Positions 8,339 through 64,000 of a stretch of 64,000 nt of DNA are shown one piece after another. The DNA is taken from IMG/VR virus record IMGVR_UViG_3300020470_003428, positions 16,540-80,539 of that record; one strand, given 5' to 3'. The stretch is from a virus. Both the position numbers and the translations under genes were made by a program. The first letter of the stretch is position 1. Every line of letters starts with the position of its first letter. Under the pieces are notes generated by a model, which was not told the origin of the DNA, did not search any database, and saw nothing but the letters and a program-made list of their open reading frames with translations.

Positions 8339-8982
8339 GTTGGGTTATAAAAACTACACCACCCAGTTGCAATATATTTTTCTCCTTTATTAGGAGTGAC
8401 TCCTTTGTGGGGATGAGTCCAATAAGCAGGCCAAATCACAACACGTCCTTCCTTAGGTTGAATAGTTGTAGCTTGATGGGGAAATTCTGTTCCCGATTGT
8501 GCATCATTTAAATAAATCATCCAAACCAGCATACGATCTCCAGCTAGTGCGTGATCTTCTGCAGTTAATGAATTTAGGTCTAATTCCTGATTATTAATAT
8601 TTTTCCATCTAGAAACATGTTCACAATGTAAGCCGCTGTATCCTTGGCCTTCTGAATAATATTGAATGTTATACCAAGATCTCAAACACCATGAGGCTAA
8701 TTGATCTAGAAATGGATAAGTGATTTTATATCGCCCAATAGCCTCAACAACAGTCGGTAAAAGAATTGTATTGAACTGACGAAATGGTGTATATGGTATT
8801 TCATTATCAATTTCAGAAAAATCGACATTAAAATCTATCGATTTCTTGGATTCTGTATCTCTCGAATACATGAAACGCTGTTTGTCTTTATCTTTTAATT
8901 GTTTGAAGTATTGAATGACTGATTGGCAAGAATTTGAATCTAATAAATCATCATAAATTTCAATAAAGGATACATCAGTCAT
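8335..8982 (-). CDS. 2-oxoglutarate/Fe(II)-dependent oxygenase-like protein
   Basis: 215 residues. YSGLHCEHVSRWK carries the proximal ligands (HxE type). WPAYWTHPHKGVTPNKGEKYIATGW carries the distal His and Lys/Thr region typical of prolyl-4-hydroxylase-like phage oxygenases. It overlaps the 3' end of the halogenase gene by 8 bases on the same strand, so it is translated with it. Likely to act on the same pathway as the halogenase, which is inference. Confidence 0.75.
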   Translation of the reverse strand: MTDVSFIEIYDDLLDSNSCQSVIQYFKQLKDKDKQRFMYSRDTESKKSIDFNVDFSEIDNEIPYTPFRQFNTILLPTVVEAIGRYKITYPFLDQLASWCLRSWYNIQYYSEGQGYSGLHCEHVSRWKNINNQELDLNSLTAEDHALAGDRMLVWMIYLNDAQSGTEFPHQATTIQPKEGRVVIWPAYWTHPHKGVTPNKGEKYIATGWCSFYNPT

Positions 8983-10147
8983 TTTGTTTTAATTCTTCTG
9001 TCATTCCTTTGTGCCAATATTTTAAACCAGATAGAGCCCAAGGACCGTATCTAAAACTTGCAGGATTAGTCGCTTCAGCAATTTTGACATCTTCTAATGT
9101 TTTGTTTGCAATAAACTCAAAGGCATCATGAAACAAAGGCTCATGTATTGATAGATCCTTTGCATACTTCCAAAATGGAGTGTCATATTTAGAACCAAAT
9201 TTATAGTGCCAAAGGATAAAAGTTTCCACCTGTTTAATATGTTGTTTGATATCTATGGAAGCATGATGAGCAGCCCAACCTTTGTTGCCAATGAACTGAT
9301 ATGAATACCTAGCCCATGTTTGATAAGTTGAAATAGATGTGGATTCCATTGGTTCTAAAAAGAACAAACGATTCCCATTAAGAATGATTCGATTATTGAT
9401 AACAGGTTGTTTAGCTACATAGTTCTTAAATGTCAAATGATCAGTGATTTTAACGTTAAAATTTTTGGTGAAATTTTTTTCAGCATCTTCCCGCGAGGTT
9501 ATTTCCTTGTTATATAAATATCCAATAGACCTGTCATATGATGGTGATTCTTCATGAGTTGGAATAATAAATGTCCAACCATCCTCTGTTGCTATGTGTT
9601 TGGTATATGGATCATTTATTTTAGACTCAGGCTTACCTAAGACAACCGCATTAACAGGGTTAATCAATTCATCGTAATCGTCAAAATTTGAAGGTCTCCC
9701 CCTGCAGTCAATAATATAATCTGCGTCTACTTCATCTAAATTATTAATTGCTTTTTCAACAACTTTAAAAGTATTAGATGATAAAACATATCGTTGCATT
9801 TCCGCAGGACAAAAATGTACTGCAATTTGATTACCAGGGAAAGGATGAAAAACATCTTTATTAATCTTGCCCCAATCCTGATATAAGATTCCTAACTTAG
9901 GAGTGGCATGAATAGCATTGGAGTAATAATTAAATTCTTCCTCTAAAGCACTCCAAAGTAATTGAGGCTGTTGAGGAAATGTTGCCTGACCTACTTTTTC
10001 AGTCTCAGTATGAGGATCATGAATCAGTTCAATTTCGTCAATCCCTCTGCCATTGCCTCTCCATTTATCCATCTTGGATTGCCAAGAATACTCCAAAGCT
10101 GAGAAGCATCCTGCATTACCAGCCCCAACGATAGAAACTTTAGTCAT
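8975..10147 (-). CDS. flavin-dependent (tryptophan-type) halogenase
   Basis: 390 residues. GAGNAG at 8-13 binds FAD. VGQATFPQ at 52-59 corresponds to the family's GExxIP-type segment. Lys84 in TPKLGILYQDW aligns with the catalytic lysine that forms the chloramine. GWTFIIP at 190-196 is a near match to the diagnostic WxWxIP, with Phe for the second Trp. LEPMEST at 264-270 matches the LEPLEST catalytic-Glu segment. The enzyme uses reduced FAD, O2 and halide. It is shorter than the bacterial enzymes (about 500 or more). A 28-residue membrane peptide gene overlaps its start, and an oxygenase gene overlaps its end. Confidence 0.8.
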   Translation of the reverse strand: MTKVSIVGAGNAGCFSALEYSWQSKMDKWRGNGRGIDEIELIHDPHTETEKVGQATFPQQPQLLWSALEEEFNYYSNAIHATPKLGILYQDWGKINKDVFHPFPGNQIAVHFCPAEMQRYVLSSNTFKVVEKAINNLDEVDADYIIDCRGRPSNFDDYDELINPVNAVVLGKPESKINDPYTKHIATEDGWTFIIPTHEESPSYDRSIGYLYNKEITSREDAEKNFTKNFNVKITDHLTFKNYVAKQPVINNRIILNGNRLFFLEPMESTSISTYQTWARYSYQFIGNKGWAAHHASIDIKQHIKQVETFILWHYKFGSKYDTPFWKYAKDLSIHEPLFHDAFEFIANKTLEDVKIAEATNPASFRYGPWALSGLKYWHKGMTEELKQND

Positions 10148-13427: not shown

Positions 13428-14246
13428 TTAATCGTCGTCGTCGTCGTCGCCGTACACTTTGCTGTGGAAATAATCAAACATCTCCTTGGGATCCATGTAA
13501 TCAGGAATGTTTAATTTATTACCAATAACTTTACCGTAGTCATCACGTTCATATGTTCTGCCTTGGTGATAATTTAATGCTGCGCCAGTTTCTAATACTC
13601 CCCTATCTATATATGCCTTGTTCTGAGGCAAGCCACGCATATAAAAATGATCGGTCATACGATTACCTGCACTTGCTGCAGCATCTATACCGTCATTAAC
13701 TTCATACTCAGGAAGAGTAGGAGAAAAATTATTCCAATCAATATCTTGCCAATTAGGCCCTGGCGTTGGAGTTGGAGTTGGAGTAGGGGTAGGGGTTGGA
13801 GTAGGGGTAGGAGTAGGAGTCGGGGTAGGAGTGGGAGAAGTATTACGTTGTTTCCATTCGTCTGAACGTCTGATATTTGCTAAGACGTCATCTCTAGTCG
13901 CTCCTTGTTTAAGGTCGTTCATCCAATAAGACCGGCCTTCATCTCTTAATCCTCGGCCTAATTCACTTTTATAAGTATCTTGAAGCCACTTTTCGTCACT
14001 CAACCCTATGTCTCTTTCTATATCTGCTTTTGAAGTTCCGCTACGATAAGCATCACCCCAGTAATTAAGACCTTCTTCCCCGACATCTCTCCCAAGATCT
14101 CTCTGATAGACGCTACGCAACCAAGAACTGGTTGCTGGATCTTTCTTCCATGCGTCTGTTCTTTCTATTGCGGATTGCTGGTTACTTAATATACCTGAAG
14201 CAGCCTTTGATATTGCGTTATTTAATATCCCAGGAGAGAACAACAT
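13428..14246 (-). CDS. DUF4214 repeat protein with Thr-Pro linker
   Basis: 272 residues. Two DUF4214 units are seen (about residues 41-86 and 87-133: WLRSVYQRDLGRDVGEEGLNYW and WLQDTYKSELGRGLRDEGRSYW). A run of about 13 Thr-Pro repeats (13752-13840) follows, then a C-terminal domain ending in six Asp. DUF4214 units bind calcium-like or surface ligands in cyanobacterial S-layer and phage proteins. Probably a virion appendage or adhesin; inference. One of three DUF4214 genes in a row. Confidence 0.7.
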   Translation of the reverse strand: MLFSPGILNNAISKAASGILSNQQSAIERTDAWKKDPATSSWLRSVYQRDLGRDVGEEGLNYWGDAYRSGTSKADIERDIGLSDEKWLQDTYKSELGRGLRDEGRSYWMNDLKQGATRDDVLANIRRSDEWKQRNTSPTPTPTPTPTPTPTPTPTPTPTPTPGPNWQDIDWNNFSPTLPEYEVNDGIDAAASAGNRMTDHFYMRGLPQNKAYIDRGVLETGAALNYHQGRTYERDDYGKVIGNKLNIPDYMDPKEMFDYFHSKVYGDDDDDD

Positions 14247-14615: not shown

Positions 14616-15140
14616 CTATGAAAGGAATGAATCAGTATCGTCCCACATCGAGGCGATCAAACTATTAGCTAATTTACTGCTTTCTTGTGGTTTATTATGC
14701 AGGAAATCGACGAATCGTCCGGATTTATAGCGGTTGCCATATTGATTAGAAGTGACAAAAGGAATTGAACCCATCTGTTCTGCTGGAGTTAAATCAACAC
14801 CTAGTCTTCTTCCTAGCGGATTCCAAGTATCTTCGAAGTGTCCTCCGTATCCTCCGACTTTTGGTTCAGGAATTGTAGATGATCCAGATGGGTCGTCTGG
14901 ATCTACTGGAACGACAGGAGTTACTGGATCAGGTCTTTGTGCTAAGCCGCGACGGTATCCGTCATACTCAGGACTTCTTCTGATATTGGCTATCACTTGT
15001 TCACGGGTTTGACCTCTCTCATGAACGTCATCAGTCCAATATTTACGTCCTTCAGCGCCTAGTTCTCTTCCTAGTTCATCTCTGTATACACCTTCTAACC
15101 AAGCTTCAGTTCGAGCCCTCGCATCATCAGTGGCTGACAT
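14616..15140 (-). CDS. DUF4214 protein with Pro/Asp linker
   Basis: 174 residues. N-terminal DUF4214 unit (about 9-60: WLEGVYRDELGRELGAEGRKYW), a Pro/Val/Asp linker (PVTPVVPVDPDDP), and a C-terminal domain unlike the others. Its spacing from the other two DUF4214 genes is under 50 bases, so they form one unit. Confidence 0.7.
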   Translation of the reverse strand: MSATDDARARTEAWLEGVYRDELGRELGAEGRKYWTDDVHERGQTREQVIANIRRSPEYDGYRRGLAQRPDPVTPVVPVDPDDPSGSSTIPEPKVGGYGGHFEDTWNPLGRRLGVDLTPAEQMGSIPFVTSNQYGNRYKSGRFVDFLHNKPQESSKLANSLIASMWDDTDSFLS

Positions 15141-50946: not shown

Positions 50947-51741
50947 TTGAATAAGAAACTAGAACGTACTGATCAGATTATTGATTCTTGCGTGAATACT
51001 TTTCTGTCAACAATGATGTGTTGGTCAGGGGGTAAAGATAGCATGGTACTACTCCATTTATTAAGAAGACATGGAGTAAAAATTCCGATCTTATTCTTTA
51101 GAGAACCATGGCAACCATTTAAATATGAGTTCCATGATCGAATTATTCGAGATTGGGAGTTATTGGTTTATTCATGGCATCCTTACGAATCCTTAATGCA
51201 GGAGAAAAATGGAGAGTTTGAAGTTCAAAACAGGTATGCAATCAACGGTTATACGATTTCCTGCCCTACAGGAATCGTTGATCCTGTCGATGATTTACCT
51301 TGTACTAGCTGTCTGGAAATTTTAAGACGTCCTAAACAAAAAGAACTACTTGTTCCCTATTTAGATGCTATTTGGATAGGACATAAAGGAAGCGATACGG
51401 ACTCCTTAGCAGGAGATGTTGGAATTAAATCTGAGGTTCGACAAGTTCCCGGTGGAGTATCTTCTATTTTTCCTTTAAGAGATTGGACTGATGAGGACGT
51501 ATGGAATTATATAGAAGAGCATGATGTACCTTATGACGAAAAACGATATGAAAAATTTGAAGGTAAATGGAGAGAGCGTCCTGATAGAAGGCATAATGCT
51601 GATTACGTTCATGCCTGTACTCGAAGCGTAGACAGAAGGGAAGGAGCAGAAGAGTTCCCTTATTGCAGGAAATTAAAAACAACAGTTCAAAATATGGCTA
51701 AATATGTTGTATGGACGGAACCTGTTAAGCCTGACTATTAA
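50947..51741 (+). CDS. PAPS-reductase-like PP-loop protein
   Basis: 264 residues from TTG 50947. PP-loop SGGKDSMVLLHLL (27-39). GVSSIFPLRDWTDEDVWNYIEEHDVPYD is typical of APS/PAPS reductases and DndC/sulfurtransferase relatives. The usual reductase C-terminal ECGLH motif is absent; Cys residues are CTSC, CTRS and PYC. It may use ATP to activate a sulfate or adenylate intermediate, possibly for a modification. It sits alone in the virion block, an unusual neighbourhood. Confidence 0.65.
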   Translation: MNKKLERTDQIIDSCVNTFLSTMMCWSGGKDSMVLLHLLRRHGVKIPILFFREPWQPFKYEFHDRIIRDWELLVYSWHPYESLMQEKNGEFEVQNRYAINGYTISCPTGIVDPVDDLPCTSCLEILRRPKQKELLVPYLDAIWIGHKGSDTDSLAGDVGIKSEVRQVPGGVSSIFPLRDWTDEDVWNYIEEHDVPYDEKRYEKFEGKWRERPDRRHNADYVHACTRSVDRREGAEEFPYCRKLKTTVQNMAKYVVWTEPVKPDY

Positions 51742-53835: not shown

Positions 53836-56154
53836 ATGGCAGCTTTTGCATCTCAGCAGCCCATCGATGGCCTAGCCGATACTAGTTATTACCAAGAAGA
53901 ACTCGACAGAATTAGAAAGCGTGGTAACTCTGTTGTGCAAAATACTCCTCAAGGAGTGGCTGGAGGAGATAATATGATTGGTGACTTTTTAGATTTTTAC
54001 AACAGACAGAAAAGTCCTATATACGATGGTCTAGGAAATCAAATAGGTTTTAATCATGGCTATGGTGTTGAGGAAAGATGGGATCCTCAGCAACCAGGTG
54101 ATGACAAATGGATTAGTGATGAAGAGTGGGAGCAAATAAGAAATGAACCTTCTCCTCCACCAGAGCAGCGATGGCCTAACTTACCAGGGGAAGACGTAGA
54201 TGTACCTCAACCAATAGATAAAGGACTACCCGGATTAATCAACCCTGTTGAGCCTCCAGGTAATATCGATCCAGTATCTCCAAGATCTGGATATGGTAGT
54301 CGGATTGGCGCAGATCCTGATTCTATGTTCACCATGGATTTCCAAGATCAAGATGGTGACGGCACAGACGACAGACATCAAAGAGGCCCAGGTCAGCCAT
54401 ATATAACTTGGGAAGATTCAACTCCTGAGGAGAGAGGTAAATTTGGTCGTACACCGGGTGGACGTGATTCTAGGATTGGTCCTCCACCAGGGGGATGGGA
54501 AGAAGATATCATGCCTCCTGGTTGGGGTGGTTCAGGAACGCCTCCAAGAAGAGGTGAAAGTGCGGAAGACTATAGACGACGTATGCAGGAGATACAAGAT
54601 AACTGGGATAATAGAAGAAGAGAAGAACAAGAAGGTCGTAGACCACCTAGATGGCGTGGTGACGATCAAATTGGTCCAGGGGATCCTAGACCTCCTGTGA
54701 GACCGGGCTTACCTCGTCCTCCTGAGCCAAGACCAAGACCAAAGCCACCTGGACCAAGACCACCTGAGCCAAGACCACCTATTCCTAGTCCTGAGCCAAG
54801 ACCACCTATTCCTAGTCCTGAGCCAAGACCACCTAGACCAGAGCCAAGACCACCAAGACCAGAGCCAAGACCACCTAGACCTGACGGTGAATATGGTGAC
54901 CTTGTGCCATTCCCTATGCCACCGAGTTGGGAAGGATGTCCTACTCCTGACCAGCAAATTTTGCTAGCTGATAAAAGCTTGATTTTTGCAGGGGAACTCC
55001 AAGTTGGCGACAAAGTGCATACGATGCACGAGACAACATTTGAAAGTGGTGACTATGAAGTTACTCATGTAAGTTTCCATGAGCAGCCTGTTTATCTTGT
55101 TAAATTTAGCGATGATCACGAAATTAGATGTTCCGCGAGTCATAAGCTTTATTCCGAAGATAAGGAAGCTTGGGTTTCTATTAAAGAGTTAGGTTCTGGG
55201 GAGAGAGTCTCTTTATATGACGGAGAGGTTGCCTTTATTTCAGCTGAATACACTGGTGATGAAAAGGTAGTCAAGATTACGGTTGAGGACGCTCATACCT
55301 ATATTTGTGAAGGTTTATTCTCTCATAACAAGACCTTAGCTCCTGAATCACATCCAGACCATCCTGACTACGGAAAAGATCCTTCTGAATGGGGCAATAA
55401 GCGTCCAAAAGACGAAGTAGCCATAGGACGTATGTATCAAGATTATCTAGGAAGGGACGCCGATAAAGAAGGATTTCAATATTGGTTAGATCAGGTACGT
55501 TCCGGTAATCAAAGCTTAGACCAAGTCGCTGCGAATATCAAAGCTTCTCCAGAGTCGGAAGACTACAGAGCTAGCAGACCTACTCCTGTTTCTTCGGGTG
55601 TAGGGGATGAGGATTACAGAGCCGTCAGCATTAGATATGCCGAGGGACATGAGCCTTCAGATGAGCAACATCGTATTAACCAGAAGAAATTCTGGGAGGA
55701 GATACAGGGACCAACTAGGCGATTTGGCGAGAAGAGAAACGAAGAAAGACAAAAACTCGCAGAAAAAACTCCAGCTGTACCTGAGGAAAGGAAAGAGGAG
55801 GCGAAGGAGAGAAGTAGGCAATGGCAGCAAGATCGTGGTCCTATCAGAAGAGAGGAAAGAGCACCTAAGCCAAACATAGGCAGAGATCCGGAAAGAAGAC
55901 CACGGATAGAGCCTTCTAGACCTGAGCCTTCTAGACCTAAACCTTCTAAGCCTAAGCCTTCTAGACCTGAACCTTCTAGACCTGAACCTAAGCGTGATTG
56001 GTTGGAAGCCGCCTATCAAGATAATCTTGGACGTGCCGCAGACAAGGGTGGAAGAGAATACTGGGCTAATGAAGTTGCATCCGGACGTCAGACTAAAGAA
56101 CAGGTGGTGGAAAACATTCGGAGATCAGACGAATACAAGAATAGGAATAGGTAG
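53836..56154 (+). CDS. proline-repeat/DUF4214 protein with embedded Hint (intein-like) domain
   Basis: 772 residues. Order: polar N-terminus; Pro/Arg/Glu repeats (about 300-350, PEPRPP and PIPSPEP units); a Hint domain from Cys368 (CPTPDQQILL) to His497-Asn498 followed by Lys499 (EGLFSHNK), with block-B His436; a DUF4214 unit (about 533-577); a second Ser/Lys/Pro repeat; and a second DUF4214 at the C-terminus. The Hint is about 131 residues and has no visible homing endonuclease. HN followed by Lys, rather than Cys/Ser/Thr, suits a bacterial intein-like (BIL) domain, which cleaves rather than splices. Likely an adhesin or fibre protein. Confidence 0.75.
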   Translation: MAAFASQQPIDGLADTSYYQEELDRIRKRGNSVVQNTPQGVAGGDNMIGDFLDFYNRQKSPIYDGLGNQIGFNHGYGVEERWDPQQPGDDKWISDEEWEQIRNEPSPPPEQRWPNLPGEDVDVPQPIDKGLPGLINPVEPPGNIDPVSPRSGYGSRIGADPDSMFTMDFQDQDGDGTDDRHQRGPGQPYITWEDSTPEERGKFGRTPGGRDSRIGPPPGGWEEDIMPPGWGGSGTPPRRGESAEDYRRRMQEIQDNWDNRRREEQEGRRPPRWRGDDQIGPGDPRPPVRPGLPRPPEPRPRPKPPGPRPPEPRPPIPSPEPRPPIPSPEPRPPRPEPRPPRPEPRPPRPDGEYGDLVPFPMPPSWEGCPTPDQQILLADKSLIFAGELQVGDKVHTMHETTFESGDYEVTHVSFHEQPVYLVKFSDDHEIRCSASHKLYSEDKEAWVSIKELGSGERVSLYDGEVAFISAEYTGDEKVVKITVEDAHTYICEGLFSHNKTLAPESHPDHPDYGKDPSEWGNKRPKDEVAIGRMYQDYLGRDADKEGFQYWLDQVRSGNQSLDQVAANIKASPESEDYRASRPTPVSSGVGDEDYRAVSIRYAEGHEPSDEQHRINQKKFWEEIQGPTRRFGEKRNEERQKLAEKTPAVPEERKEEAKERSRQWQQDRGPIRREERAPKPNIGRDPERRPRIEPSRPEPSRPKPSKPKPSRPEPSRPEPKRDWLEAAYQDNLGRAADKGGREYWANEVASGRQTKEQVVENIRRSDEYKNRNR

Positions 56155-63653: not shown

Positions 63654-64000
63654 ATGACTTCTTCTTCTTTAACAAGAAGTGGCAGTGTTTTGAAAGGATG
63701 GGACGAGTTCTGTGAGTGGACTACTTCTACTAGTAATCGTATTTACGTTGGTTGGTTTGGAGTCTTAATGATTCCATGTCTACTTACTGCAGCAACTTGT
63801 TTCATCATTGCTTTCATAGCTGCTCCTCCTGTCGATATTGACGGGATTCGTGAACCAGTAGCAGGTTCATTCTTATATGGAAACAACATCATCTCAGGAG
63901 CCGTTGTACCGTCATCTAACGCAATCGGTCTTCACTTCTACCCAATCTGGGAAGCTGCAACCCTCGACGAATGGCTCTATAACGGAGGACCATATCAACT
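63654..64000 (+). CDS. psbA: photosystem II D1 protein, 5' part (continues past window)
   Basis: At least 115 residues from ATG 63654. [44 protein letters not shown] and [21 protein letters not shown] are classical D1. D1 forms the photosystem II core with D2 and is replaced during light damage; phage copies keep photosynthesis running during infection. Truncated only by the window edge. Confidence 0.95.

What the first reader, a model, noticed from the sequence alone, without database searches (positions are those of the whole stretch)
54937..55329. Hint/BIL domain embedded in a DUF4214 proline-repeat protein
Seen: Cys368, block-B His436 and terminal His497-Asn498-Lys499 define a 131-residue Hint without an endonuclease, set between a Pro-repeat arm and a DUF4214 unit. 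Known: Hint domains with HN plus a non-nucleophile residue are usually bacterial intein-like domains that cleave or transfer rather than splice. Inference: self-processing may release or crosslink the DUF4214 part of a virion or surface protein.
Basis: partly seen in the sequence, partly recalled or inferred. Interest (0 to 1): 0.7.

Follow-up and report, generated by a model that had tools for sequence, protein, structure and literature searches.

The report
Lysine-ended self-processing Hint in cyanophage virions
A small self-cutting protein module related to inteins sits in flexible arms of probable tail or virion proteins of marine phages, and it almost always carries a lysine just after its cut site where inteins carry Cys, Ser or Thr, which suggests, but does not prove, that these phages join protein pieces through lysine.

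Summary
Residues 368-498 of a 772-aa ORF (53836-56154, +) are a complete, endonuclease-free Hint fold: Cys368, His436, His497-Asn498, then Lys499. It lies between a Pro-rich arm and the first of two DUF4214 units. AlphaFold pLDDT is 90.7; the best PDB relatives are Tetrahymena BIL2 and the Ssp DnaB mini-intein (Z about 21). Purifying selection is strong (dN/dS at most 0.04). The virus is an S-EIV1-lineage cyanophage with psbA.

The main new result came from relatives. In 43 non-redundant Hints, mostly of one viral clade and set in unrelated Pro/Gly-rich proteins, Cys1, block-B His and HN are kept, and a lysine stands at +1 or +2 in 40. Bacterial toxin-type Hints mostly lack that lysine, as does the intein in S-EIV1's terminase (+1 Cys). 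Hint-less counterparts exist in S-EIV1 and in cyanophage VrlC/DUF4815 proteins.

Best reading: an autoprocessing domain of type-A-BIL kind in virion proteins, its thioester probably resolved on the conserved lysine; the nearest structural relative, BIL2, is reported to form Lys isopeptide bonds. Cleavage without ligation remains a serious rival. No activity was tested; the lysine's role is inference. New variant of a known kind.

The parts
53836..56154 (+). 772-aa ORF: N-terminal region, Pro-rich arm, Hint, arm, DUF4214, charged/Pro region, DUF4214
   Evidence: orthologues L001-L004 keep the layout, with an extra upstream DUF4214-like unit in two of them; L005 is cut at its 5' end
54688..54936 (+). 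Pro-rich repeat arm before the Hint (about residues 285-367)
   Evidence: read from the translation; arm differs among orthologues
54937..55329 (+). Hint domain, residues 368-498
54937..54939 (+). Cys368 codon (Hint position 1, nucleophile)
   Evidence: 44/44
55141..55143 (+). His436 codon (block-B His)
   Evidence: 44/44
55324..55329 (+). His497-Asn498 codons (block G)
   Evidence: 43/44 each
55330..55332 (+). Lys499 codon (+1); Lys at +1 or +2 in 40/43 of the Hints gathered
55405..55557 (+). first DUF4214 unit
55993..56145 (+). second DUF4214 unit

Best explanation
This is a self-processing Hint module of the type-A BIL kind, carried in a flexible Pro-rich arm of a probable virion protein. 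Shown: the fold (as a confident prediction), the catalytic residues and the selection on them, and the recurrence of the arm-Hint-Lys-arm arrangement in unrelated phage proteins. Inferred from Hint chemistry: Cys368 attacks the preceding peptide bond and holds the N-terminal part as a thioester, and Asn498 cyclises and frees the C-terminal part. Inferred from conservation and from Tetrahymena BIL2: the thioester is taken over by an amine of the conserved lysine (epsilon-amine of Lys499 at +1, or of the +2 lysine in relatives), so that the N-terminal part becomes joined through an isopeptide bond to the DUF4214-bearing part while the Hint is removed. The biological effect would be a covalently matured or crosslinked tail/virion protein with its DUF4214 domains displayed on a flexible arm.
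For: Fold with pLDDT 90.7; closest solved relatives are T. thermophila BIL2 (Foldseek rank 1, E 4e-11, TM 0.82; VIA Z 21.1) and the Ssp DnaB mini-intein (Z 21.3); the sequence profile also ranks BIL2 first (E 9e-11). BIL2 is reported to make a Lys epsilon-NH2 isopeptide bond and to conjugate ubl4 to substrates (PMC8616854). Cys1, block-B His, His and Asn are kept in at least 43 of 44. dN/dS is 0-0.015 against four near relatives and 0.04 against L005, lower than in the ends of the same protein. Lys at +1 or +2 in 40/43 non-redundant Hints, the label changing state several times on the tree, while the C-exteins are unrelated; bacterial Hints with long C-exteins have it in 5/28 (Fisher 7e-11, not corrected for kinship). 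Several bacterial proteins, some with a signal-peptide-like start, end HN-K-stop or HN-K plus 1-4 residues. Empty sites: S-EIV1 AHV82213 starts MG-GKK..PPPPDDTF where L028 has MG-[Hint]-KGN..PPPPPPDTTF; VrlC of five phage or virus records lacks the arm-Hint-arm cassette.
Against: No activity was measured. Lysine is a poor nucleophile at neutral pH and its conservation has other possible causes (electrostatic help to Asn cyclisation, packing). Arg takes +1 in one degenerate Hint, and three of the 43 lack the lysine at +1/+2. In L028 the N-extein is only Met-Gly and in some bacterial proteins the C-extein is a single Lys, so joining two large parts cannot be the purpose in every member. In BIL2 the nucleophilic lysine is described as one of the ubl5 C-extein; the solved construct continues Met-Gln after the Asn position, so it is not at +1. 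The best solved relatives are only about 13-24% identical. Seven of the ten bacterial C-terminal Hints were seeds of a profile used there; the earlier look is (8 of 9), found with a profile (A4) that itself holds the lysine column.
Confidence: 0.4

Rival explanations
1. Cleavage-only maturation. The Hint cuts at Cys368 by thioester hydrolysis and/or after Asn498 by Asn cyclisation, as BILs without a +1 nucleophile mostly do, and so releases or separates the DUF4214 part. The lysine only tunes Asn cyclisation or stability.
For: BILs lacking the +1 nucleophile give mainly cleaved products (PMC7664689; PMC4031507). Hints at the very end or start of proteins fit trimming better than ligation. No Cys/Ser/Thr at +1 in the intact members of the main clade.
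Against: Does not readily explain why a lysine within two residues of the cut is kept in 40/43 Hints with unrelated exteins but is rare in bacterial toxin-type Hints, which are thought to release their toxin by cleavage (PMC3482391).
Confidence: 0.33
2. Intermolecular transfer. The Cys368 thioester is attacked by an amine or hydroxyl of another virion protein or of the host surface, so the N-terminal part becomes covalently attached elsewhere, as in Hedgehog's transfer to cholesterol.
For: BIL2 is reported to conjugate ubl4 to other substrates such as Ras (PMC8616854). Many relatives have the Hint at the C-terminus with a C-extein of at most 31 aa, a Hedgehog-like layout.
Against: No acceptor domain or sterol-recognition region is seen next to the Hint. 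HN is kept, which Hedgehog does not need. A kept lysine in cis is at hand.
Confidence: 0.13
3. A selfish mini-intein that has lost its endonuclease and splices out without a role.
For: Catalytic residues intact; clean empty site in S-EIV1; phage inteins are common, and S-EIV1 itself has one in terminase.
Against: No Cys/Ser/Thr at +1; the site is not a conserved enzyme motif but varied Pro/Gly-rich arms; in VrlC the insertion includes arms and extra sequence that splicing would leave behind; several tandem copies occur in one protein.
Confidence: 0.08
4. An inactive Hint kept only as a folded spacer.
For: No activity has been shown; block F Asp is missing (Lys/Arg most common at that place, Asp once).
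Against: Near-complete conservation of Cys1, His, His and Asn across 44 sequences and very low dN/dS.
Confidence: 0.06

Closest known systems
Tetrahymena thermophila BIL2 of the BUBL1 locus (PDB 6y75, 6tmm)
   Same: Hint fold (Z 21.1, TM 0.82), Cys1 and C-terminal Asn (the solved construct is C1A-N143A), reported Lys epsilon-amine isopeptide ligation
   Different: Eukaryotic, flanked by ubiquitin-like domains; its lysine is in the ubl5 C-extein rather than at +1; about 21% identity
Type A bacterial intein-like (BIL) domains, e.g. C. thermocellum BIL 2lwy
   Same: HN ending, no Cys/Ser/Thr at +1, no endonuclease, set in variable parts of non-conserved proteins
   Different: The phage group keeps Lys at +1/+2 and an HE.T motif, and sits in phage structural-type proteins; Z 18.9, 22% identity
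Pretoxin HINT (PF07591) of polymorphic toxins
   Same: Best Pfam match; Hint between a repeat-rich part and a C-terminal part
   Different: No toxin domain found; bacterial long-extein Hints sampled here have Cys/Ser/Thr at +1 in 11/28 and Lys at +1/+2 in 5/28
Class 1 mini-inteins (Ssp DnaB, gp41-1)
   Same: Fold (Z 19-21), Cys1, block-B His, HN
   Different: +1 Lys in place of Cys/Ser/Thr, no conserved-enzyme insertion site, F:4 Asp missing
Synechococcus phage S-EIV1 protein AHV82213
   Same: Counterpart at the same syntenic place; 47% identical to the non-Hint part of L028, with a weak PBS_linker_poly match
   Different: Lacks the Hint

Membership tests
Hint superfamily | Hint fold with Cys1 and block-B His | tested here: met
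Type A BIL | C-terminal His-Asn | tested here: met
   His497-Asn498; 43/44 in relatives
Type A BIL | no Cys/Ser/Thr at +1 | tested here: met
   Lys499; 40 of 43 have Lys at +1/+2
Type A BIL | no homing endonuclease, variable non-conserved host proteins | tested here: met
   131 aa; unrelated hosts
Type A BIL | autocleavage or splicing activity | not testable with these tools
   needs expression
Class 1 intein | Cys/Ser/Thr at +1 | tested here: not met
   Lys499
Class 1 intein | insertion at a conserved site of a conserved protein | tested here: not met
   set in varied Pro/Gly-rich arms
Class 3 intein | no Cys1 and a Cys at F:4 | tested here: not met
   Cys1 present 44/44; the F:4-like position is Lys/Arg/Val and others, never Cys
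BUBL-type isopeptide-forming BIL | closest fold to BIL2 | tested here: met
   Foldseek rank 1; VIA Z 21.1, tied with the DnaB intein at 21.3
BUBL-type isopeptide-forming BIL | Lys epsilon-amine attack on the N-terminal thioester | not testable with these tools
   the conserved lysine makes it plausible; no chemistry done
BUBL-type isopeptide-forming BIL | flanking ubiquitin-like domains | tested here: not met
   flanks are Pro-rich arms and DUF4214
Pretoxin HINT (polymorphic toxin) | profile match | tested here: met
   PF07591 1.1e-7, 32.6 bits against cut-off 27.7
Pretoxin HINT (polymorphic toxin) | C-terminal toxin domain after the Hint | tested here: not met
   only DUF4214 units found; an undescribed toxin cannot be excluded
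Hedgehog Hog-Hint | C-terminal sterol-recognition region instead of HN | tested here: not met
   HN present; DUF4214 follows

The most novel reading that the evidence does not exclude
A prokaryotic and viral class of Hint domains defined by a conserved +1/+2 lysine that acts as the acyl acceptor, so that virion arms are ligated by isopeptide bonds without enzymes or ATP: a phage counterpart of the ciliate BUBL system. It would also occur in bacterial proteins whose C-terminus is HN-Lys, some of them probably secreted.
Probability: 0.3. Interest if true: 0.85.

Novelty: new variant of a known kind. Interest (0 to 1): 0.6.

Why it matters
The phage inteins met here and in the papers read lie mostly in terminases, helicases and ribonucleotide reductases. 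A Hint module repeatedly built into probable virion proteins, with a kept lysine at the cut site, points to self-processing or self-ligation as part of phage tail maturation. It offers compact natural Hints (about 125-135 aa) for ATP-free lysine ligation that could be tested in one expression experiment. It also gives a sequence rule (HN followed by K, or by an aliphatic residue and K) that may separate structural or possibly secreted Hints from toxin Hints.

Tried and rejected
(1) Selfish intein: thought unlikely on the +1 residue, the absent endonuclease, the variable site and the extra cargo. (2) Class 3 intein through the Cys in HTYIC: that Cys is not at F:4, Cys1 is present, and the Cys is replaced in about half of the members. 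(3) Disulfide between the block-B Cys (Hint 65) and the HTYIC Cys (Hint 124): they co-occur (21 both, 15 neither; Fisher 3e-5, not corrected for kinship), but 8 members have only one, and no coordinates were available; left as a lead. (4) N-degron idea for the new N-terminal Lys or Leu: no test available; Ile/Val/Ala at +1 do not fit. (5) Hint-less orthologue of the window protein itself by sequence: the upstream-gene scan gave only L004; synteny through S-EIV1 and L028 served instead. (6) Cellular members of the clade: the first genome scan found none, the second one distant relative, Sphingopyxis flava (37%); both used few patterns, so this is a lower bound. (8) DUF4214 fold search: phycobilisome linkers lead the list, but with Foldseek E above 1 and VIA Z of at most 5.8, so only suggestive. 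(9) A profile match of one short S-EIV1 segment to DUF4214 was not significant. (10) Literature searches found no report of this phage Hint group; the library lacks most subscription journals, and a look-up for an S-EIV1 paper by a remembered DOI found nothing held.

Full report
What is there. ORF 53836-56154 on the + strand encodes 772 aa. Residues 368-498 form a Hint domain: PT-HINT 1.1e-7 and Intein_splicing 2.2e-7 on the domain alone, and two DUF4214 units after it. NCBIfam's intein N-terminal and C-terminal models, weak matches, begin and end exactly at Cys368 and Asn498. An AlphaFold model from 52 relatives has pLDDT 90.7 and pTM 0.85. Against the PDB the best matches are T. thermophila BIL2 (Foldseek E 4e-11, VIA Z 21.1) and the Ssp DnaB mini-intein (Z 21.3), followed by other inteins, the C. 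thermocellum BIL (Z 18.9) and Hedgehog (Z about 18). A profile search of PDB sequences also ranks BIL2 first.

The virus. The record is an 80.5-kb IMG/VR virus. The start of a psbA gene lies at 63654-63998 (identified by reading the translation). Terminase and the next large protein (probably the portal) are 52% and 47% identical to Synechococcus phage S-EIV1, by far the nearest isolate. So this is an S-EIV1-lineage cyanophage. The Hint gene lies a few genes upstream of terminase, in a run of + strand genes most of which match no PHROG family; one weakly matches tail lysin and tape-measure families. The genome holds 11 DUF4214 matches in at least four ORFs and only this one Hint found with the clade's profile.

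Relatives. Near orthologues L001-L004 keep the layout, with 99-100% identical Hints but arms that differ in length and repeats; L005, cut at its 5' end, is 83% identical. Wider scans gave 46, 70 and 50 loci, many shared. After removing near copies there were 44 aligned Hints, one of them a degenerate tandem copy and a few of them outliers of other phage Hint types. Cys1 is in 44/44, block-B His in 44/44, His and Asn in 43/44 each. Host proteins are mostly unrelated to each other: the DUF4214 protein of the window; VrlC/DUF4815 (phrog_358), whose homologues lie between gp8 and gp13 in cultured cyanophages and are in part annotated as structural protein; small Gly/Pro proteins; and proteins that end with the Hint. 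Within 30 aa of the Hint, Pro+Gly is 0.28 (median) against 0.15 in the rest of the protein, higher in 97.6% of 41 (Wilcoxon 4e-8). DUF4214-like units follow the Hint also in L006, L009 and L034, so the pairing recurs outside the window's gene. L052 carries four tandem Hints in which #1 has lost HN and #2 has lost Cys1.

Selection. Between the window and L001-L004, 15-22 synonymous and 0-1 non-synonymous changes separate the Hint (dN/dS at most 0.015); against L005 it is 0.04. The N-terminal 110 aa and C-terminal 60 aa of the same proteins have 0.08-0.24.

The lysine. Among 43 intact Hints, +1 is Lys in 29, and in 11 more +1 is aliphatic and +2 is Lys, 40/43 together. Internal Hints mostly have HN-K, those within 31 aa of the C-terminus mostly an aliphatic residue and then Lys (25 and 4 against 1 and 10, Fisher 1e-5, not corrected for kinship). 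On a maximum-likelihood tree the state changes several times, so it is not one inherited accident. As a control, Hints from bacterial genomes were drawn by PF07591 and by this group's profile. Those with a long C-extein have Lys at +1/+2 in 5/28 and Cys/Ser/Thr at +1 in 11/28; C-terminal ones have Lys at +1/+2 in 9/10, several ending HN-K-stop or a few residues later. In the earlier look it was 8 of 9; seven of the ten later served as profile seeds, and the A4 profile used first holds the lysine column, so the bacterial figure leans towards Lys. Some of those proteins begin with signal-peptide-like sequences (by eye). A second control is S-EIV1 itself: its terminase has a 330-aa insertion with a significant Intein_splicing match and Cys at +1.

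Empty sites. No clade Hint was found in S-EIV1 (a search without a positive control inside that record). In L028, an S-EIV1 relative (terminase 84% identical in its longer match), the protein at the same syntenic place reads MG-[C..HN]-KGNTTYHAPPPPPPDTTF, and the S-EIV1 protein reads MG-GKKVSYT-PPPPDDTF, 47% identical beyond. The window's Hint gene lies at a similar place, judged by the shared downstream gene and terminase, although outside the Hint it did not match either protein. In VrlC the arm-Hint-arm cassette fills a short loop just before the conserved DPLAQSF and is absent from SynMITS9220M01, S-SM2, Bellamy, S-SSM7 and AG-345-O18. Excision of the Hint alone would leave the arms and cargo, so the cassette is not a traceless intein.

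Mechanism. Literature: BILs lack the +1 nucleophile and mainly cleave (PMC7664689); type A BILs can splice when the freed alpha-amine attacks the thioester (PMC4031507); BIL2, the nearest structural relative here, is reported to form a Lys epsilon-NH2 isopeptide bond and to conjugate its N-extein to other substrates (PMC8616854). The kept lysine within reach of the junction is best explained, in my judgement, as acyl acceptor (0.4). Cleavage-only processing with a tuning role for Lys is close behind (0.33). Intermolecular transfer (0.13) and a selfish or inert Hint (0.14 together) are less likely. All chemical steps are inferred; none was measured. The lysine in BIL2 belongs to the following domain, so the parallel is of chemistry, not of position.

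Novelty. The fold and the HN ending place it with type A BILs; the conserved +1/+2 lysine and the probable virion setting make it a new variant. I found no description of it in the held library, which is not proof that none exists.

Noticed in passing
window 63654-63998 (+): Start of a psbA (photosystem II D1) gene at the window's end; marks the virus as a cyanophage. Identified by reading the translation.
   Followed up: partly
L238 16081-18621 (S-EIV1 KJ410740, 54080-56620): S-EIV1 terminase carries a ~330-aa insertion with an Intein_splicing match (C..LN-C), annotated in the record only as terminase; the window's terminase lacks it.
   Followed up: yes
L180, L168, L187, L193, L196, L197, L198, L206: Bacterial proteins whose C-terminal Hint ends HN-K at or within five residues of the stop codon; L180, L168 and L198 begin with a signal-peptide-like stretch.
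   Followed up: partly
L052 (and L045-L054): Four tandem Hints in one phage protein; the first has lost HN and the second has lost Cys1, so the pair keeps one N-terminal and one C-terminal reactive end.
   Followed up: no
Hint residues 65 and 124 (window protein residues 432 and 491): Two cysteines that tend to occur together or not at all across the relatives (21 both, 15 neither, 8 only one); possible redox pair, not corrected for kinship.
   Followed up: partly
G000:3254-5350 (L207), window 13428-14246 and 14616-15140 (-): Further DUF4214 proteins in the same virus, two of them with Gly/Ser or (Thr-Pro)n arms. A DUF4214 model has phycobilisome linkers and the RsaA S-layer N-domain among its weak best fold matches (Z at most 5.8).
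   Followed up: partly
L042 / L013: A second, different Hint-like stretch (CVALES..HHNV) follows the clade Hint after a GGGGG linker in the same protein.
   Followed up: no
window 8975-10147 (-); 7021, 7769, 8335, 20871, 39248, 57677; 50947-51741: Halogenase-like flavoprotein, many 2OG-Fe(II)-oxygenase-like genes and a PAPS-reductase-like gene, judged by eye from translations.
   Followed up: no
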